From positions 62,001 through 126,000 of the forward strand of contig JAHDVK010000001.1 of NCBI GenBank assembly GCA_023384675.1: 64,000 nucleotides of DNA, read 5' to 3'. Below, piece after piece: positions 1-7,409 of the stretch. Positions within the stretch are counted from its first letter, which is position 1, and every line of letters begins with the position of its first letter. The notes beneath the pieces are model-generated. The model ran no database searches. It saw only the letters and a program-made list of their open reading frames with translations, and was not told the origin of the DNA. The stretch comes from Bryobacteraceae bacterium. GTDB taxonomy: Bacteria > Acidobacteriota > Terriglobia > Bryobacterales > Bryobacteraceae. Made by a program: the position numbers and the translations under genes.

Positions 1-477
1 ACCGGCCAGATCCTTCCGGAACGTGTCTGTCAAAACCGCGCAGGTATGCAGTGAGGTGAGCGAGTAAGGGAACCCATACTGGCGAAGGTTGTTGCAGACC
101 GAGACTTTGCCGCAGAAAGCGTCGCGGCGGCGTTCCACGTTGAGTTGCGTCAGATCGTCCGGGTACGCCTGGACGAGCACAGGCACATCGAGCGCGGAGA
201 GCTTCAATGTGTCCGCCACGGCCTTCTCGTCGCCGAAGTTCGGCAGAGAGACCAGCACGCCGTCAATCCGGCCGCGCTGAGCGCGGAACAGATCCGCGCA
301 GCGCTTCGCGTCGGCCCAGGTCTCCACCGAGCCGAGCTTCGAGTCGTTCTCGCCGAGCAGAACCGGTGTGATATCCATCTCGCCGAACAGAGTGAGCAGA
401 TCCTTCCGGGCCTCGATGACCAGACGGTCCGGAAAAAAATCGCGGTTACCGATGATGACGCCAAGGGTCATTGCCAT
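1..477 (-). CDS. FucI/AraA-like sugar isomerase family protein (partial, C-terminus off left edge)
   Basis: The N-terminal 159 residues are visible. They start with a short beta strand and glycine turn (LGVIIGNRDFFPD) and later carry the block RRDAFCGKVSVCNNL near residues 117-131, which resembles the L-fucose/L-arabinose isomerase-like family (COG2407 type). Members interconvert aldoses and ketoses or have unproven roles. The start is ATG at 477 with an AAGGAG ribosome site; an ATG at 484 is out of frame. It is the last visible gene of a minus-strand operon with a SorC-type regulator, FGGY kinase and split transketolase, so it probably feeds a ketose to the kinase. The substrate is not readable here, and the metal-binding residues lie outside the window. 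Confidence 0.75.
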   Translation of the reverse strand, partial: MAMTLGVIIGNRDFFPDRLVIEARKDLLTLFGEMDITPVLLGENDSKLGSVETWADAKRCADLFRAQRGRIDGVLVSLPNFGDEKAVADTLKLSALDVPVLVQAYPDDLTQLNVERRRDAFCGKVSVCNNLRQYGFPYSLTSLHTCAVLTDTFRKDLAG

Positions 478-510: not shown

Positions 511-1494
511 CTAATCACCCGAACCGGCTGCCCGCGCAGTGGGCTGTTCCTTGAGCAACCTTTGCGCCATGGCCCGATCCGTAATCAAGACATTGATCCA
601 GCCGCCGGCAAGCGCGCCGCACACCGCGTCCGTCTTGCGCGCGCCTCCGGCCACGCCGATCACCCGGGAAACCCGCCGCAATTGCGGAAGGTCCATACTA
701 ATCACACAGTCGTTCAGCAAGGTGATGACGGGTTGACCCCTGCGGTCGAAAAACCGCAGGCAAATATCGCCTACAGCGCCTTTTGCGCTGAGCTTTTTGA
801 GCTGTTTTGGCGGAAAGACGTTGCCGCTATCGGCCAGCATCTTTGAGGGTTCCACCGCCCCGATGCCCACTACCGCAACGTTCACTGTGGGGAACAAATG
901 CACCGCCTCTTGCACATACTGGTCCTTCATCAATATGTGCCGGGCCTCCGGCGAGCCCACAATGCCCGGCGCGGGCAGCATCGTGACCTCGGCGCCGAGC
1001 AACTGCGCGAGCCGCCGCGTGACATTCGTGGCGTGCATGGCCGCACCCGGACTGCCCACCCCGCCCAGGATCTGAACTACCCGCGATCCTGGGCAGCGGT
1101 GCGTGGGATGCATGGCCTCGACCATCGCCAGCAGTGCGGCGCTCCAGCAGGAGATGCCGATCACGTCCGCCGGCTTCAGCGTGTTTTCCAACGTGAAGGC
1201 CGCGGCGGCGCCGAGGTCGCGAACGATTTGTTCCTCGCCCTCGCCGCTATCTACCACCACTGCGTCCTCCAGTCCGTAGGCGGCCTCGAGCGCATCCTCC
1301 AACTCCGGGTGAGTGCCCGCGGGCGAGGTCACCACTATGCGCACGATGCCTTCTTTCCTGGCGCGCTGCAGCAGACGCGACACTGTGGATTGATGGACGT
1401 TCAGCCGCCGCATGATCGCGGTTTGGGTCAATCCCTGCTGGTGGTACATTCTGGCCACCTTGGTCATCAGCCGGAGTTCGTCGATTCGCGCCAT
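511..1494 (-). CDS. SorC/DeoR-type sugar-binding transcriptional regulator
   Basis: A 327-residue protein. Residues about 17-45 form a helix-turn-helix (GLTQTAIMRRLNVHQSTVSR), followed by the SorC-type effector domain, related to phosphosugar isomerase folds, which normally binds a phosphorylated sugar. The start chosen is ATG at 1494, 4 bases after the kinase stop; longer in-frame extensions would overlap the kinase and lack family similarity. No clear Shine-Dalgarno is seen, so translational coupling is likely. Sitting inside the sugar operon, it is the natural candidate to bind the inverted repeats found at 4769-4790 and 6344-6378. That assignment is inference. Confidence 0.88.
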   Translation of the reverse strand: MARIDELRLMTKVARMYHQQGLTQTAIMRRLNVHQSTVSRLLQRARKEGIVRIVVTSPAGTHPELEDALEAAYGLEDAVVVDSGEGEEQIVRDLGAAAAFTLENTLKPADVIGISCWSAALLAMVEAMHPTHRCPGSRVVQILGGVGSPGAAMHATNVTRRLAQLLGAEVTMLPAPGIVGSPEARHILMKDQYVQEAVHLFPTVNVAVVGIGAVEPSKMLADSGNVFPPKQLKKLSAKGAVGDICLRFFDRRGQPVITLLNDCVISMDLPQLRRVSRVIGVAGGARKTDAVCGALAGGWINVLITDRAMAQRLLKEQPTARAAGSGD

Positions 1495-1498
1495 GATT

Positions 1499-2983
1499 TC
1501 AAACCGCAGGCGTGGAACGCGCCTTCGCCACCGCTTCCAGCCAACCCGCATAACGCCGCTCCCGCGCGGATGCCTGCATCCGCGGGATGAAGAGATCCTG
1601 CTGGCGGGGCAAGCTGGCGAGCTGGTCCGTCGATTTCCAAATACCCAGAGCCAATCCCGCAAGCCAAGCCGCGCCAACGGCGGACAAGTCGCCCGAGAGA
1701 TTCCGGCGCACGGGGCGGTCGAGGATGTCAGCCTGGAACTGCATCAGGTCGTCGTTACGGCTTGCGCCGCCGTCGGCCAGCAATTCCGGAAGTTGTGAGG
1801 ATGCGTCGGCCTGCATTGCCTCGAAGACATCTCGCACCTGATAGGCAATTGATTCGAGCGACGCCCGCGCCAGCTGGGCGGCGTTGGCCCCGCGCGTCAG
1901 CCCGCAGATCACACCGCGCGCGCCGGCGTCCCAATACGGCGCGCCGAGGCCAGCGAACGCGGGCACTAGGTAGACACCGGCAGTGTCAGTCATTCCTCGC
2001 GCCAACGCGGCTGCTTCGGTGGCTGGGTCGGACAAACCCAGGAGCTCTCCCACCCACTGCACGGCGCCACCCGCCACGGTGACGTTGCCTTCGAGCGCGT
2101 ACCGCACCGTGTCCCGCCACCACGCGATGGTCGTGGAGAGGCCGCGAGAGGAGCCGACGGGTTCCTCAGTCAAGGTCATCAGCGAGGAGCCGGTGCCGTA
2201 CGTCGCCTTCACCGATCCGGGTTCGAACGCGGCGTGGCCGAACAGTGCCGCATGAGAATCGCCGATCAGGCTGCCAATCGGAACACCCGACGGAAGCCCG
2301 TCAGCGGAGGTTTCACCATACACAGCGCTGGATCTGCCCACCTCAGGAAGGATGGCGCGAGGCACATTGAACACGCCGAGTAACTCGCTGTCCCAGGTCA
2401 GGCGGCGCAGGTCAAAGAGTTGCGTGCGGGCAGCATTGCTGGCGTCGCAGGCGTGTACGGCGCCGCCCGACAGGTTCCACAACACCCAACTATCCACGGT
2501 CCCCGCGCACAGTTCGCCGGCCTCCGCCCGGCTTTGCCCGTCAGGGATAGAATCCAGCAGCCAGCGCAGTTTGCTGGCGGAGAATAACGGATCGATTCCC
2601 AGGCCTGTTCGCTGCTGCAGCAGGGGTTCCAGTCCGCGCTTTTTCAACTCCGCACAGAAACCGGCCGAGCGGCGGCACTGCCACACGACGCACGGTCCAG
2701 CGGGCGCGCCGGTGCGCCGGTCCCATACCACGATCGACTCGCGTTGATTCGTAATGCCCGCGCCCGCCAGCACAGGGTGGCCCGCCTTTTCCAGGCACTC
2801 GCTTGCCGCCTCCCTCACGCTTCGCCACAGCGCCTCCGCGTCCTGCTCGACCCATGCGGGTTGCGGGAAGCGGATATCGAGTGGACGCGAGGCCCGCGCG
2901 ACAATCGCGCCACCGGCATCCACCAGCAGCGCCTTCGTATTGGTGGTGCCCTGGTCGATCGCCAGAATGTGCCCTGCGCTCAT
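1499..2983 (-). CDS. FGGY-family carbohydrate kinase
   Basis: A 494-residue kinase with the FGGY N-terminal ATPase motif (LAIDQGTTNTKALLVD), the GITNQRES segment and the second-domain glycine motifs (GTGSSLMTL, LADGGASRNDDLMQFQAD). It phosphorylates a sugar or polyol with ATP. The opening resembles glycerol kinase, but the family is broad (xylulose, erythritol, apulose and others). The ATG at 2983 has a strong GGAGGAACGC ribosome site and overlaps the stop of the upstream transketolase subunit in an ATGA arrangement, so the two are translationally coupled. Partner genes suggest the phosphorylated product is a ketose phosphate used by the split transketolase. Confidence 0.92.
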   Translation of the reverse strand: MSAGHILAIDQGTTNTKALLVDAGGAIVARASRPLDIRFPQPAWVEQDAEALWRSVREAASECLEKAGHPVLAGAGITNQRESIVVWDRRTGAPAGPCVVWQCRRSAGFCAELKKRGLEPLLQQRTGLGIDPLFSASKLRWLLDSIPDGQSRAEAGELCAGTVDSWVLWNLSGGAVHACDASNAARTQLFDLRRLTWDSELLGVFNVPRAILPEVGRSSAVYGETSADGLPSGVPIGSLIGDSHAALFGHAAFEPGSVKATYGTGSSLMTLTEEPVGSSRGLSTTIAWWRDTVRYALEGNVTVAGGAVQWVGELLGLSDPATEAAALARGMTDTAGVYLVPAFAGLGAPYWDAGARGVICGLTRGANAAQLARASLESIAYQVRDVFEAMQADASSQLPELLADGGASRNDDLMQFQADILDRPVRRNLSGDLSAVGAAWLAGLALGIWKSTDQLASLPRQQDLFIPRMQASARERRYAGWLEAVAKARSTPAV

Positions 2984-3927
2984 GCGTTCCTCCTCCGGGC
3001 CACAAGCCCGGCCGCCGCTGCGCGGATCCCCTCGGCGGTGAGGCCGAAGTGCTCCAGGAGCCACGCGGGACTCCCCGTGGGTGCAAACACTCCGGGGATG
3101 CCGAGGATATGCACCGGCACGGGATGCGTGGCCGCTGTCGCTTCCGCGACCGCGCCGCCAAGACCCCCAATCGCAGAGTGTTCCTCTACCGTGACAATCG
3201 CTCCCGTCTCCTCCGCTGCGCGGACGATGGCGTCGCGGTCCAAGGGTTTGATGGTGGCCATGTTCAACACGCGCGCGGCAATGCCCTCAGCCGCCAACAG
3301 GTCCGACGCATCCAGGGCTCGAGAAACCATCGTGCCCACGGCGATGATTGTCACATCACTGCCTTCGCGGAGCAATGCAGCGCGGCCCGGCTCGAATTGA
3401 TAGTCGAGAGAGTGGACATCGGGCACCGGCATCCGGCTGATGCGAAGAAACACCGGGCCCTCGATACGCGCCGCCGCCTCGACGGCTTGTGCGGTTTCCG
3501 GGCCGTCGGCGGGTGCGATCAACACTAGGTTTGGGATGACTCGCGTCCAGGCAAGGTCCTCGGCAGAGTGGTGAGTCGGGCCGAGTGGACCATAGGCCAC
3601 GCCGCTGGACATGCCGCAGAGTTTGACGTTCGCCCGGCCGTAGCCCAAGTCGATCTTGATTTGCTCCAGCGCACGGCCAGTCAGAAAGCAGGCTGCTCCG
3701 CACACGAAAGGAAGCAGTCCGCTGTTCGCCAGACCTACGCCCGTTCCAATCAGGTTCTGCTCGGCGATACCGACGTTCACGAAGCGCTGTGGGAAGCGTT
3801 TTCGGAAGCTCGTCAAGTTCGATGATCCGACGGAGTCGTTGGTCACGGCTACGATGCGGGGGTTATCCTCGGCCAGGCGCTCGAGCGCCGCGCCGAAGGG
3901 CTGGCGGCAATCGGTCACCACGCTCAC
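2980..3927 (-). CDS. Transketolase C-terminal subunit (split transketolase)
   Basis: A 315-residue protein covering the pyrimidine-binding and C-terminal domains of transketolase: the FVNVGIAEQNLIGTGVGLA block (the Glu of IAEQN activates thiamine diphosphate) and a C-terminal TVEEHSAIGGLG block. It pairs with the N-terminal subunit encoded just upstream. The start is read as GTG at 3927, overlapping the TGA of the upstream gene and preceded by GGGGGAGG. Split transketolases are common in dedicated catabolic operons, where they act on unusual ketose phosphates rather than in the core pentose pathway. Its stop overlaps the kinase start. Confidence 0.93.
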   Translation of the reverse strand: MSVVTDCRQPFGAALERLAEDNPRIVAVTNDSVGSSNLTSFRKRFPQRFVNVGIAEQNLIGTGVGLANSGLLPFVCGAACFLTGRALEQIKIDLGYGRANVKLCGMSSGVAYGPLGPTHHSAEDLAWTRVIPNLVLIAPADGPETAQAVEAAARIEGPVFLRISRMPVPDVHSLDYQFEPGRAALLREGSDVTIIAVGTMVSRALDASDLLAAEGIAARVLNMATIKPLDRDAIVRAAEETGAIVTVEEHSAIGGLGGAVAEATAATHPVPVHILGIPGVFAPTGSPAWLLEHFGLTAEGIRAAAAGLVARRRNA

Positions 3928-4763
3928 GGCGAAGCCTCCCCCAGTTCCCGCAGCGCCGCTTCGAGTTGCTCGCTGGAGGGCACTTTGTGGTGCCACTCCA
4001 CCCGATCCTCCATGAAACCGACACCCTTGCCCTTCACCGTATGGGCGATGATGCAATTCGGTTTGCCTGCCTCAAGGGGCAGCGCCTGGAACTGCTGAAA
4101 CAGCGCGCCGTGATCGTGACCGTCCACCTCCGCCACGCTCCAGCCGAAGGCCCGCCATTTATCCGCGAGTGGCTCCAGACGCATGGCTGCCTCGGTTGCG
4201 TCGCCCTGCTGGAAACGGTTCCGGTCGATGACCAAGGTCAGGTTGTCGAGGCCATAATGCGCAGCGGACATGGCGGCTTCCCAATTGCTCCCTTCTTGCA
4301 ATTCGCCGTCGCCGGTGAGCACAAACGTCCGCCAACCAGCTCCTTGAATCCGTGCGCCCAGCGCCGCGCCTGCGGCAATCGGCAGCCCATGGCCCAAGGC
4401 GCCCGTGCAGGCCTCCACTCCCGGCACTTTGTTGCGGTCCGGGTGCCCGTTCAGCGGCGACAGCGGTGCCATATAGGACTCAAGCTGCTCCAGCGGGAAA
4501 AAGCCCGCCGCCGCGAGGACGGCGTACAGGGCCCCTGAGCAGTGCCCCTTGCTCATGATGAAACGGTCGCGATCCGGCGCAGCCGCACGCGCCGGGTCCA
4601 CGCGCAATACGCCGAAATACAGCACGCTCAAGATGTCGGCCGAAGAAAAATCGCCGCCCGGATGCCCCATCCTGGCGCGATGGACCATGCGCAGGCTTCG
4701 CCGGCGGATCAGGTTCGCCTGACGCCGGATCTCCTCAATCTGATCGGAAGCCAGAGTCTGCAT
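3924..4763 (-). CDS. Transketolase N-terminal subunit (split transketolase)
   Basis: A 279-residue thiamine-diphosphate-binding half of transketolase. The cofactor motif GDGELQEGSNWEA is present, followed after about 25 residues by the expected DRNRFQQ. The front has the HRARMGHPGGDFSSADIL block typical of the family. It is the first gene of the minus-strand operon; its ATG at 4763 lacks a good Shine-Dalgarno and lies only 6 bases from an inverted repeat (4769-4790), so the mRNA leader is short. With the downstream subunit it should form an active heterotetramer that transfers two-carbon ketol units. Confidence 0.93.
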   Translation of the reverse strand: MQTLASDQIEEIRRQANLIRRRSLRMVHRARMGHPGGDFSSADILSVLYFGVLRVDPARAAAPDRDRFIMSKGHCSGALYAVLAAAGFFPLEQLESYMAPLSPLNGHPDRNKVPGVEACTGALGHGLPIAAGAALGARIQGAGWRTFVLTGDGELQEGSNWEAAMSAAHYGLDNLTLVIDRNRFQQGDATEAAMRLEPLADKWRAFGWSVAEVDGHDHGALFQQFQALPLEAGKPNCIIAHTVKGKGVGFMEDRVEWHHKVPSSEQLEAALRELGEASP

Positions 4764-4768
4764 AACGA

Positions 4769-4790
4769 TGCATTACTGCTGTATAATGCA
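4769..4790 (-). promoter_or_regulatory. Candidate operator of the transketolase/kinase operon
   Basis: A perfect inverted repeat, TGCATTA, 8-nt gap, TAATGCA, lies between the predicted -10 element and the transketolase ATG. The geometry (7-base arms with TGCA at the outer ends, 8-base gap, 5-6 bases after the -10) matches the element at 6344-6365 before the sugar permease. Binding by the SorC-type regulator at 511-1494 is inferred from context. Confidence 0.6.
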
Positions 4791-4796
4791 AGCTAA

Positions 4797-4825
4797 ACCC
4801 TATCAACCACCGGTCCGGATGTCAA
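4797..4825 (-). promoter_or_regulatory. Sigma70-type promoter of the sugar operon
   Basis: Read on the minus strand there is TTGACA (4825-4820), a 17-base spacer and TAGGGT (4802-4797). The -35 is consensus; the -10 keeps only the TA start and the final T. Transcription would begin inside the inverted repeat at 4769-4790, which fits repression by a bound regulator. Confidence 0.5.
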
Positions 4826-4847
4826 CCCGAACCGCATGCGCCCGCTC

Positions 4848-6260
4848 TCAGGGATAGACCGTGACGATCACCCGCCGGTAGCGCGTGAGCGGCGGCGTGC
4901 CGTCGTCGGTCACCGCGAGAATGAAGTGCACCGTTTCGGGTTTGGCCACCTTGGGCGCGGTGATAGTGGCGTTCATGGTCTTGGCGTTCTCGACGTTGAG
5001 TGGCGCGCCGGTCCGTCCGGTGGCCAGCGTGAGCGTGCCAGCCTCCCCGTAATGAATCCACTCGTAGCTCAGCCCATGACCGTCGGCGTCGCTCGATCCC
5101 TTCGCGCTCAGAGTTACCCGCTCGCCGGAGCGGGCTTTGATCTCGCTGGGATGTCCAAGTTGTGCGACAGGCGGATGGTTTGCTTCCGCGTAAGGCTTGA
5201 TCGTCCAATCCATGCGGGCGGAGAAATCGTTCTGATAGGCCTGACGCCAGCGCCAGATCGTGGCCTTGTTGCTTTCGTGCCAGTTGCCGTCCACGCCCAT
5301 CACTTCGTCCATGGCATCGGTCCAGAAAGGCCGGATTTCAATCTCTGGGCTGTGTTTCCTGGGCCGCGGCGTATAAAATTCATAGCGCCCACCCCAGCCG
5401 CCCCAGTCAGGGCGCTCGGGAACGCTCAGGCCGTTATTAATTAGATTCAGGAAACTCGGGGTGTCTCCCTCCATCAAGTACTCTGTCTGTGGGTACTCGG
5501 CGCCCAGCGGGCCTTTGCCGCGAATGTGCTGGTCGAGCCACGGGTTGTCCACGATGGAGAAATTGGACCCGGAGAATCGCCCGTGAAACCTGTCGCCGCT
5601 GATGCCGCACCACGCCGAGTGGTGGTATGCGCCCAGCGAGCCGTAGCCGGGGCTGGCGATGTAAAAGAGCTTGGGAAACGTCCGCCGGAGCCAGGGTCCG
5701 CTGTCGTCCTGGTCCGAGATTGTGTACACGCGGAGTTTCGCTACGAAGCGCTCCAGGTCGGCGGGCGAACGCGTCGCGCGCACCTTCCAAAGCGCCTGCG
5801 CGAGGCAGTTTGGCCCGCCCCACACGGTCACCCAGACAGGGCGTGGGTCGTCACGGTCGACCACCTCGATGATGCGTTCCGAACCCGGTGAATCCATGCC
5901 CTCGCCGACAGCGCTCATGCCGTAGGCCGCACGACCCTCGGTGACCTTCGCCAATAGCTCCGCAACCTCCGGGTAGCCCGGTTCGTGTTGCGCCAGGTTT
6001 GCGCGAACCTCGCCATAGGCCTCCACAATGCGGCGGATCCGCCCGGGCGCAGTGCGGTTCCGCAAGTGGACCGAGGTGGTCGCGATCAGCGCCTCAACCT
6101 CAAAGTGGTTTGAATAGAGCAGGAAGCGCACCATCGATTGGGCGTCGTCCGGCTCATTCTCAATGTCGGTCAACACGATCACGCGCGGCTTGGTCTGCGT
6201 AGTGGCGCCGAGACACAGAATCCCGGCCGCCGCCAAGGTCGAAAACAGGTTCTTCAGCAT
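4848..6260 (-). CDS. Secreted DUF1593 (nucleoside-hydrolase-like) protein with Sde182-type C-terminal domain
   Basis: A 470-residue protein with an N-terminal signal peptide ([15 protein letters not shown]) and the DUF1593 opening [21 protein letters not shown], which resembles the calcium-binding Asp cluster of nucleoside hydrolases (DxxxEPDDA). Residues about 385-470 form a beta-rich domain like the C-terminus of the Sde182 cellulose-binding protein. It probably hydrolyses a glycosidic or nucleoside-like substrate outside the cytoplasm. The ATG at 6260 has an AAGGAG site. It lies between the sugar operon and the divergent permease, so it may release the sugar they use; this is inference. 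Confidence 0.85.
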
Positions 6261-6309
6261 GGCTCTCCTTCTGATCGTCGAGCCGGTGACAATTCCCAGC
6301 TCAGGGAGC

Positions 6310-6338
6310 TTGACACCTCCCGCCCGGAAGGATATAAC
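6310..6338 (+). promoter_or_regulatory. Strong sigma70 promoter of the sugar permease
   Basis: TTGACA at 6310-6315, a 17-base spacer, and TATAAC at 6333-6338. This is close to consensus and places the transcription start near 6345, at the edge of the inverted-repeat cluster 6344-6378. Confidence 0.75.
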
Positions 6339-6343
6339 CAATC

Positions 6344-6378
6344 TGCAGACATACGCAAGTCTGCATATCTATGCAGAC
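6344..6378 (+). promoter_or_regulatory. Triple half-site operator before the sugar permease
   Basis: Three alternating half-sites: TGCAGAC (6344-6350), 8-base gap, GTCTGCA (6359-6365), 6-base gap, TGCAGAC (6372-6378). The first pair has the same 7-8-7 layout as the repeat at 4769-4790. The cluster covers the predicted transcription start and runs up to the AAGGAG ribosome site, as expected for an operator, though an RNA hairpin role cannot be excluded. Confidence 0.65.
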
Positions 6379-6392
6379 AAGGAGTGGACCGA

Positions 6393-7409
6393 ATGGTGAC
6401 CGTGGATCAATACGGCTTGGCCGTCCTGTTTTGCATACTCACGATGACCTGTTGGGGCTCTTGGGCCAACACCCAGAAGCTCGCAGCGCGCACCTGGCGC
6501 TTTGAGCTCTTTTACTGGGATTTCATCGCGGGCCTGCTGCTCGCCGCGACCTTGGCGGCCTTCACGATCGGCTCGTGGGGTGATACCGGGCGTCCGTTCC
6601 TGGCCGATCTCCAGCAGGCCGGCGCCAGCAGCATCTTCTACGCCATGCTCGGCGGGACAGTCTGGAACCTCGGAAATCTGCTGCTTGTCGCGGCTATCGC
6701 CGTCGCGGGCATGGCTGTGGGTTTTCCGATCGGCGGCGGCATCGCGTGGGTTCTCGGCATCGTCGTGAATTTCCTTCTGGTGCTTCTCTCTCGCGGCGAA
6801 CCTCAGGGGAATCCCACGCTGCTGTTCACCGGTGTCGCCGTGATTGTCGCCGCCATCCTCCTCAGCATGAAAGCCTACGCCCGCCTCGCCAGCGCCCGCA
6901 AGAAGCCCAGCGCGGCAGGCATTCTGTTCAGTGTGGGCGCTGGTCTCCTGATCGCCTTTTTCTACGGTCTGGTCGTGAAATCGATGGATGGCAACTTCGT
7001 CGCCGGCGGCACCGGCAATCTGATGCCTCTGACGGGCGGCTTTTTCTTCTCGCTCGGCGCCTTCCTCACAACGTTCCTCTTCAACCCTGTCTTTATGAAA
7101 CGCCCCGTGGACGGTCCTCCTGTCGCCCTCAGCGAATACTGGAAAGGCAGCCTCGGCACGCATCTTACTGGCGTACTCGGCGGCGTGATCTGGAGCGCGG
7201 GCCTCACGATGAGCTTCATGGCCGTCGGCGCCGCCGGACCCGCCGTCTCCTACGCCCTCAGCAATGCCGCCCCCGTGGTCGCTATCCTTTGGGGCGTACT
7301 TGTTTGGAAGGAATTCGCCCAGGCGCCTCCGGGCACCAACCGCCTGCTGGTCTGGATGTTCGCCTGTTACCTCGTAGGCCTCGCGCTCATCACCTATTCA
7401 AACCGCTGA
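6393..7409 (+). CDS. RhaT/GRP-like sugar permease (DMT superfamily)
   Basis: A 338-residue integral membrane protein with about ten hydrophobic segments from residue 8 to the C-terminus. The opening (MTCWGSWANTQKLA, then RFELFYWDF) resembles the family of sugar transporters related to L-rhamnose-proton symporter and glucose/ribose uptake proteins. The ATG at 6393 has AAGGAG 8 bases upstream. It is transcribed divergently from the DUF1593 gene under a consensus promoter with an operator shared with the kinase/transketolase operon, so it likely imports the sugar that operon degrades. Confidence 0.85.
   Translation: MVTVDQYGLAVLFCILTMTCWGSWANTQKLAARTWRFELFYWDFIAGLLLAATLAAFTIGSWGDTGRPFLADLQQAGASSIFYAMLGGTVWNLGNLLLVAAIAVAGMAVGFPIGGGIAWVLGIVVNFLLVLLSRGEPQGNPTLLFTGVAVIVAAILLSMKAYARLASARKKPSAAGILFSVGAGLLIAFFYGLVVKSMDGNFVAGGTGNLMPLTGGFFFSLGAFLTTFLFNPVFMKRPVDGPPVALSEYWKGSLGTHLTGVLGGVIWSAGLTMSFMAVGAAGPAVSYALSNAAPVVAILWGVLVWKEFAQAPPGTNRLLVWMFACYLVGLALITYSNR

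What the first reader, a model, noticed from the sequence alone, without database searches (positions are those of the whole stretch)
4769..6378. Two promoters of a sugar locus share one operator design
Both TTGACA promoters (4825-4797 on minus, 6310-6338 on plus) have a 17-base spacer. 5-6 bases after the -10 both carry an inverted repeat with 7-base arms and an 8-base gap whose outer ends are TGCA: TGCATTA/TAATGCA and TGCAGAC/GTCTGCA, the latter with a third half-site. This ties the operon and the permease into one regulon, probably controlled by the SorC-type protein at 511-1494. The inner three bases differ between the sites, so the contacted sequence may be TGCA plus spacing.
Basis: partly seen in the sequence, partly recalled or inferred. 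Interest (0 to 1): 0.6.

Follow-up and report, generated by a model that had tools for sequence, protein, structure and literature searches.

The report
Shared four-part switch for sugar genes
Two start sites near a soil bacterium's sugar-use genes carry the same 32-base landing pad, built of two tandem mirror-image boxes, probably for a neighbouring SorC-type repressor; similar pads sit before matching gene clusters, probably for the plant sugar apiose, in many distant bacteria.

Summary
Both leaders align without gaps as two tandem 14-bp dyads, TGMAT-N4-ATKCA, 18 bp apart; the operon leader also has the third and fourth half-sites, overlapping the tktN start codon. TGCA-N7-GCA-N4-TGCA-N6-TGCA occurs in the held 5.73-Mb genome only at these two places. 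In 91 SorC loci, sites scoring at least 17/20 number 52 at 18-bp spacing, against a mean of 1.7 (maximum 7) at 28 other spacings; 34 loci have no site at 16 or more. The permease and its two closest homologues carry the operator at -49; in ten acidobacterial loci a permease homologue lies between kinase and isomerase. One regulon under the SorC protein is well supported by comparison; binding is untested. The genes resemble the E. coli D-apiose cluster, which has the same operator at 19/20; the kinase alone does not decide the sugar. The plan is that of DeoR and CggR repressors, with another spacing (22 and 20 bp there, by my count).

The parts
4820..4825 (-). -35 hexamer TTGACA of the operon promoter
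   Evidence: sequence; TTGAC upstream of the operator in 23 of 31 non-redundant regions with an operator
4797..4802 (-). -10 hexamer TAGGGT of the operon promoter, 17-nt spacer
   Evidence: sequence; weak; TAGCAT is the best -10 in 9 of the 23 regions with TTGAC, best of three spacers
4759..4790 (-). operon operator, 32 bp: two tandem dyads 18 bp apart (TGCATTATACAGCA - GTAA - TGCATCGTTATGCA)
   Evidence: one of only two exact genome matches to the composite pattern; pair score 18/20
4777..4790 (-). first (promoter-side, weaker) dyad of the operon operator
4759..4772 (-). second dyad of the operon operator, overlapping the tktN start codon (4763-4761)
6310..6315 (+). -35 hexamer TTGACA of the permease promoter
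   Evidence: conserved in both close homologues L140 and L141
6333..6338 (+). -10 hexamer TATAAC of the permease promoter, 17-nt spacer
   Evidence: TATAAG in L140 and L141
6344..6375 (+). permease operator, 32 bp: TGCAGACATACGCA - AGTC - TGCATATCTATGCA, starting 49 bp before the ATG
   Evidence: 18/20, same place (-49) in L140 and L141 at 16/20
6344..6357 (+). first (weaker) dyad of the permease operator
6362..6375 (+). second (strong) dyad of the permease operator; part of the 9-nt-arm inverted repeat 6359-6378
511..1494 (-). SorC-family regulator (sugar-bind domain plus N-terminal HTH), proposed repressor
   Evidence: PF04198 E 8e-64; near full-length match to DeoR 8r7y and SorC 2w48
1499..2983 (-). 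FGGY kinase, glycerol-kinase-like; 46.0% to E. coli AplK, 46.4% to GlpK
2980..3924 (-). transketolase C-terminal subunit (AptB-like, 43%)
3924..4763 (-). transketolase N-terminal subunit (AptA-like, 49%), first gene of the operon
1..477 (-). start of a protein with a fucose-isomerase C-terminal domain (471 aa; continues before the window), candidate D-apiose isomerase
   Evidence: PF02952; 55% to the isomerase inside a Rahnella cluster
4848..6260 (-). Sde182-type nucleoside-hydrolase-like protein; co-located, membership in the regulon not shown
   Evidence: PF07632 E 1.4e-111
6393..7409 (+). RhaT/ureide-permease-like transporter, second target
   Evidence: homologues between kinase and isomerase in ten acidobacterial loci

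Best explanation
Both sites are operators of the adjacent SorC-family protein. Each is 32 bp: two 14-bp dyads (TGMAT-N4-ATKCA) in tandem, centre to centre 18 bp, just downstream of a TTGACA-17-TANNNN promoter. A SorC dimer is proposed to sit on each dyad and two dimers to join through their sugar-binding domains as a tetramer, repressing transcription; a phosphorylated pathway intermediate would release it. This would co-regulate the tktN-tktC-kinase-sorC-isomerase genes and the permease 1.6 kb away. The pathway is probably D-apiose (isomerase, then kinase, then split transketolase). Shown by sequence comparison: the operator anatomy, its recurrence in distant bacteria, its placement before genes of this cluster. 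Inferred: binding by SorC, tetramer, repression, effector. The sugar is inferred from cluster similarity (my estimate about 0.7; the confidence below is for the regulation, not the sugar).
For: Composite pattern: exactly two places in 5.73 Mb, both here. The three other exact single dyads of the genome have no second dyad at 18 bp (5/10 or less). Distance scan of 46 non-redundant tktN upstream regions: 18 bp scores 15.00 against 11.87 in shuffles (z 19.3); next best spacing (24) 13.78. In 91 loci (1.51 Mb, not made non-redundant), pairs of at least 17/20: 52 sites in 40 loci at 18 bp; at the 28 other spacings mean 1.7, maximum 7. Regions not used to find the spacing: 11 of 11 intergenic regions in 8 loci score 16-19 at 18 bp, mean 18.09 against at most 15.09 at other spacings; Streptomyces L193 scores 18. 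In 82 of the loci, 34 sites of at least 17: 0 inside a query gene, 33 from 40 bp inside to 320 bp upstream of the start of one. Permease: own and the two closest homologues (78%, 76%) have the operator at -49 (18, 16, 16); the 27 other rows (45% identity or less; 36-53%) score 14 or less. Permease homologues of 72-75% lie between kinase and isomerase in ten acidobacterial loci. DeoR and CggR bind two half-operators as tetramers (PMC11229326: abstract, passages, section 22 and part 1 of section 24 read); AT-rich half-operator centres and halves of unequal strength recur here.
Against: No binding or expression data. 15 of 62 tktN upstream regions scored under 14; one of them, L065, does carry an 18/20 site that my start estimate cut off. 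34 of 91 loci have no site at 16 or more; some are short contigs or hold another tkt paralogue, others are unexplained. In one search (15 genomes, up to 3 mismatches) the stricter pattern hit 5 of the 10 genomes with an orthologous SorC and 0 of 5 without, but one of its 6 places (G011 contig 127) is not on the contig that bears the cluster. In 3 of the 11 test regions another spacing also reaches 18. The first dyad is weak in most relatives. The operon -10 is weak. Residue 34 of the recognition helix (His/Ser) goes with TGCAT/TGAAT half-sites, but the tree needs only 3 and 2 changes, so this is not independent evidence. The search began from SorC loci, so the link to SorC is partly built in.
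Confidence: 0.86

Rival explanations
1. One reading: the operator is a single inverted repeat of 7-nt arms with TGCA ends and an 8-nt gap, bound by one dimer, with an accessory third half-site at the permease only.
For: The two repeats are perfect and the only TGCA-ended ones in the window. In relatives the outer four arm pairs match as well as the weak first dyad does.
Against: The operon has the third and fourth half-sites too. In 31 non-redundant regions the inner arm pairs are at chance (0.35, 0.29, 0.23), and two dyads at 18 bp stand out from all other spacings.
Confidence: 0.04
2. The tandem dyads are bound by another regulator (LacI, DeoR or GntR type) encoded elsewhere.
For: No binding data exist; the search started from SorC loci, so the association with SorC is partly built in.
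Against: SorC is kept beside these operators in distant bacteria, also in clusters of different gene order; in L074, L083 and L117 the site lies before sorC and no other query gene; the dyad TTGAA-N6-TTCAA of many non-acidobacterial sites equals the left half-operator printed for B. subtilis DeoR, a SorC-family protein.
Confidence: 0.06
3. SorC binds the sites but activates rather than represses.
For: Nothing here measures expression.
Against: In both leaders the site lies downstream of the -10, and in all 23 regions with a TTGAC call it follows or overlaps the assigned -10, the placement of repressors; CggR and DeoR repress (PMC11229326).
Confidence: 0.04
4. The repeats act as RNA hairpins in the leader (attenuator or riboswitch).
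For: The operator lies in the predicted 5' leader; the minus strand of the permease repeat passes the terminator-like scan.
Against: No significant Rfam match in 4600-6500 (best E 0.64, far below its gathering score); in several relatives the first half-site overlaps the assigned -10 and so would not be transcribed.
Confidence: 0.01
5. The operon handles another sugar than D-apiose, the regulation being as described.
For: The kinase is as close to E. coli GlpK (46.4%) as to AplK (46.0%); the isomerase has no match among solved structures at E 0.001.
Against: SorC, both transketolase subunits and kinase match the E. coli SE15 apiose cluster (42-49%); a 55% identical isomerase sits in that cluster type in Rahnella and Sodalis; the E. 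coli cluster carries the same operator.
Confidence: 0.3

Closest known systems
B. subtilis DeoR on the dra-nupC-pdp operator (SorC family, DeoR subfamily; PMC11229326, passages and part 1 of section 24 read)
   Same: Relative over residues 7-314; operator of two half-operators, the left one TTGAA-N6-TTCAA, the geometry of the TGAAT dyads here; tetramer proposed on DNA; operator overlaps the promoter.
   Different: Direct-repeat offset 22 bp (my count on the printed operator) against 18 here; right half-operator degenerate; effector deoxyribose-5-phosphate.
B. subtilis CggR on the gapA operator (SorC family, CggR subfamily; PMC11229326, section 22 and part 1 of section 24 read)
   Same: Two tandem palindromic half-operators, one of higher affinity, AT-rich centres, site downstream of the promoter.
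   Different: Winged HTH DNA-binding domain, GC-rich half-sites, repeat offset 20 bp (my count).
E. coli SE15 D-apiose cluster (ECSF_RS02670-RS02715; PMC13001218, passages and section 19 read; region)
   Same: SorC (42%), FGGY kinase (46%), split transketolase (49 and 43%); the sorC-aptA region holds an 18-bp tandem operator at 19/20; its ABC transporter is 40-56% identical to the one in the relative L064.
   Different: Two short-chain dehydrogenases and no isomerase; half-sites TGAAT rather than TGCAT; ABC transporter instead of a RhaT-like permease.

Membership tests
SorC family regulator (DeoR subfamily) | C-terminal phosphosugar-binding domain PF04198 | tested here: met
   E 8e-64
SorC family regulator (DeoR subfamily) | short N-terminal HTH as in DeoR, not a winged HTH of about 100 residues as in CggR | tested here: met
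   HTH at residues 13-50; residues 7-314 align with DeoR 8r7y and 3-314 with SorC 2w48
SorC family regulator (DeoR subfamily) | operator of two tandem half-operators | tested here: met
   (sequence only)
SorC family regulator (DeoR subfamily) | half-operator spacing as in the two solved members (20 or 22 bp) | tested here: not met
   18 bp: at 17/20 or better 52 sites at 18 bp against 1 at 20 and 3 at 22. A difference of geometry between members, not a feature that defines the family
SorC family regulator (DeoR subfamily) | tetramer on DNA, released by a phosphosugar | not testable with these tools
   needs purified protein
D-apiose catabolic cluster | AptA/AptB-like split transketolase with FGGY kinase and SorC regulator | tested here: met
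   49, 43, 46 and 42% to E. coli SE15
D-apiose catabolic cluster | kinase specifically of the AplK type | tested here: inconclusive
   46.0% to AplK, 46.4% to GlpK
D-apiose catabolic cluster | D-apiose isomerase (apsI) | tested here: inconclusive
   55% to an isomerase inside the Rahnella cluster; the apsI sequence of Pectobacterium was not at hand
D-apiose catabolic cluster | growth on D-apiose | not testable with these tools
   -

The most novel reading that the evidence does not exclude
A single SorC operator type, two TGMAT-N4-ATKCA dyads locked at 18 bp, has regulated the same (apiose-type) catabolic module across Acidobacteriota, Chloroflexota, Pseudomonadota, Deinococcota and Actinomycetota, and its shorter spacing means that this SorC tetramer holds DNA in a geometry (about 1.7 turns between dimers) unlike DeoR and CggR.
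Probability: 0.55. Interest if true: 0.5.

Novelty: new variant of a known kind. Interest (0 to 1): 0.45.

Why it matters
It gives a testable operator code for a widespread group of SorC regulators, in the annotated records that I fetched mostly labelled only as sugar-binding regulators, that of the E. coli D-apiose cluster among them. No title or abstract listed describes such an operator, and SorC is not mentioned in the main text of the E. coli apiose paper; those are listings of an open-access library, so it may be in print elsewhere. It also predicts that a RhaT-like transporter carries the same sugar, and a SorC-DNA geometry (18 bp) different from the two solved ones.

Tried and rejected
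RNA element: nothing significant in Rfam. Recognition-helix covariation (His34 in 26 of 29 regulators with mainly TGC half-sites and 0 of 17 with mainly TGA; 6 undecided rows left out): kept only as a lead, since the tree needs 3 and 2 changes and the independent-pairs test found at most 2 pairs. Kinase as evidence for apiose: inconclusive. Literature: the listings show no paper on the operator of an apiose regulator or on an 18-bp SorC operator by title or abstract; those papers were not read, except PMC11229326 (abstract, passages, section 22, part 1 of section 24), PMC13001218 (passages, section 19) and PMC8579813 (passages). The apiose paper of Carter et al. is known to me from recall and as a citation inside PMC13001218.

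Rows dropped: one search aligned 8 of 10 SorC orthologues (L006 and L012 have a stop in frame). One search kept the best 80 of 168 confirmed loci. One search used 46 of 62 upstream regions (others have a SorC at least 85% identical to one kept). One search used the 31 of these 46 that score at least 15. One search scanned 8 of the 9 cluster records fetched (L184, L186-L193); the ninth, an unannotated Streptomyces, was scanned. Of 100 plasmid records matched I fetched 5 (H23, H26, H29, H30, H36), of 90 three (H54-H56). Loci that repeat loci were not counted again.

Full report
What was checked. The window lies in a 5.73-Mb genome of 60 contigs, 97.4% complete (contig 41, 62001-126000). Contigs of its relatives have the lengths of named Bryobacteraceae/Bryobacterales contigs, so the host is most likely a bryobacterial acidobacterium (inference). 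The genes are: a protein with a fucose-isomerase domain, a SorC regulator, an FGGY kinase and two transketolase halves on the minus strand; a Sde182-type protein, also minus; and a RhaT/ureide-permease-like transporter on the plus strand.

The window has exactly two TGCA-N14-TGCA pairs and exactly two perfect 7/8/7 inverted repeats beginning with TGCA, both here.

The anatomy is larger than described. Read away from each promoter, the two leaders align without a gap: TGCA at offsets 0, 18 and 28 and xGCA at offset 10 in both. That is two tandem dyads of 14 bp with a 4-bp linker, 18 bp from centre to centre. The composite TGCA-N7-GCA-N4-TGCA-N6-TGCA occurs in the held genome only at these two places, with none or one mismatch. 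Five exact TGCAT-N4-ATGCA dyads exist in it; two are here and the other three have no second dyad 18 bp away.

Relatives. SorC matches at E 1e-60 or better occur in 23 of 257 genomes of the order (own included; two of them are distant, about 40% identity). 80 named loci, the best of 168, were fetched: Acidobacteria, Chloroflexi, Inquilinus and other Alphaproteobacteria, Trueperaceae, Balneolaceae, Solirubrobacter and others. Transketolase, kinase and often isomerase genes recur beside sorC. Ahead of tktN the tandem dyads recur: 47 of 62 regions score at least 14/20, 15 do not (one of the 15, L065, carries an 18/20 site that my start estimate cut off). Over 46 non-redundant regions the 18-bp spacing stands out from all others between 12 and 40. 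Over 91 loci, 52 sites in 40 loci reach 17/20 at 18 bp; the other 28 spacings give 48 sites together (mean 1.7, maximum 7); 34 of the 91 loci have no site at 16 or more. In 82 of these loci (own and the test records left out) there are 34 such sites; none lies inside a query gene, and 33 lie between 40 bp inside and 320 bp upstream of the start of one, some ahead of sorC itself.

Test regions. In records not used to find the spacing, 11 of 11 intergenic regions (E. coli SE15 apiose cluster, Rahnella, Sodalis, Erwinia, Rhizobium, Deinococcus, Shinella, Agrobacterium) reach 16-19 at 18 bp, mean 18.09, against a mean of at most 15.09 at any other spacing; in three of them another single spacing also reaches 18. 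A Streptomyces plasmid reaches 18, Solirubrobacter loci 16, Kribbella only 14. With a stricter pattern (up to 3 mismatches), 5 of 10 genomes with an orthologous SorC and 0 of 5 without it have hits; one of the 6 places, in G011, is away from the cluster and unexplained.

The permease. One search gave 30 homologues from 20 of 30 genomes. Own and the two closest (78%, 76%) have TTGACA-17-TATAAN and the operator at exactly -49 from the start codon (18, 16, 16 of 20); the 27 others score 14 or less. In ten acidobacterial loci a permease of 72-75% identity lies between kinase and isomerase (L091, L094, L097, L101, L108, L109, L112, L115, L118, L124), and in an eleventh (L078) a partial one follows the kinase at the contig end. 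In two loci without it that I looked into, a sugar ABC transporter lies between sorC and isomerase (L064) or between kinase and isomerase (L105; read from the ORFs). The permease is therefore a plausible replacement transporter for the same sugar. In one relative a 16/20 site lies at or just before the start of an outer-membrane receptor gene beside the permease (L020, about 1690-1721).

How it likely works. SorC-family DeoR and CggR bind two half-operators as a dimer of dimers joined by their effector domains (PMC11229326: abstract, passages, section 22 and part 1 of section 24 read). The operator here has the same plan: two dyads, the promoter-distal one better conserved in the non-redundant set, AT-rich centres in that dyad (positions 23-26, not part of the search consensus, hold 0.43-0.99 bit), a poorly conserved linker (0.26 bit or less). 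The TGAAT form of the dyad, TTGAA-N6-TTCAA, equals the left half-operator printed for DeoR. The spacing differs: 18 bp, against 22 (DeoR) and 20 (CggR) by my counting of the printed operators. The site follows or overlaps the assigned -10, so repression is likely. Binding, oligomer and effector are not shown.

The sugar. SorC, kinase and both transketolase halves are 42-49% identical to those of the E. coli SE15 D-apiose cluster; the strains with such a cluster that were tested grew on D-apiose, while K-12 did not (PMC13001218, section 19). E. coli lacks the isomerase, but Rahnella and Sodalis carry a 55% identical isomerase inside the same cluster. The kinase alone does not decide (46.0% to AplK, 46.4% to GlpK). 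D-apiose is the best guess, at about 0.7.

Covariation. Recognition-helix residue 34 is His in 27 and Ser in 25 of 52 regulators; His goes with TGC and Ser mostly with TGA half-sites. The tree needs only 3 and 2 changes, so shared descent explains it as well.

Verdict. Observation confirmed; one regulon under SorC well supported by comparison, binding untested; the operator model corrected. A new variant of a known kind of switch, of moderate interest.

Noticed in passing
L002:7501-9051 (about 2.5-0.95 kb before the window start): A GH28 (polygalacturonase-type) gene converges on the isomerase gene; it would fit a pectin-derived, apiose-containing substrate.
   Followed up: partly
L020:1690-1721: A 16/20 tandem site lies at or just before the start of an outer-membrane beta-barrel receptor gene beside the permease in a relative, a possible third regulon member.
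   Followed up: partly
window 4848-6260: A Sde182-type nucleoside-hydrolase-like protein sits between the two operators; matches to it occur in 20 of the 80 loci, some at only 27-31% identity. Role unknown.
   Followed up: partly
window 4756-4772: The tktN start codon lies inside the last operator half-site and I see no Shine-Dalgarno sequence before it; translation may start on a very short leader, or at another codon.
   Followed up: no
L184:16189-16220 and L184:14678-14709: The E. coli apiose cluster has two further 17/20 tandem sites besides the 19/20 one; the tkt-sorC regions of Rahnella, Sodalis and Erwinia also hold a 19 and a 17.
   Followed up: partly
L034 (G011 contig 127:20748-20779): A tandem-dyad match with 3 mismatches on a contig other than the cluster's in a relative of the same genus; a chance hit or another target.
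   Followed up: no
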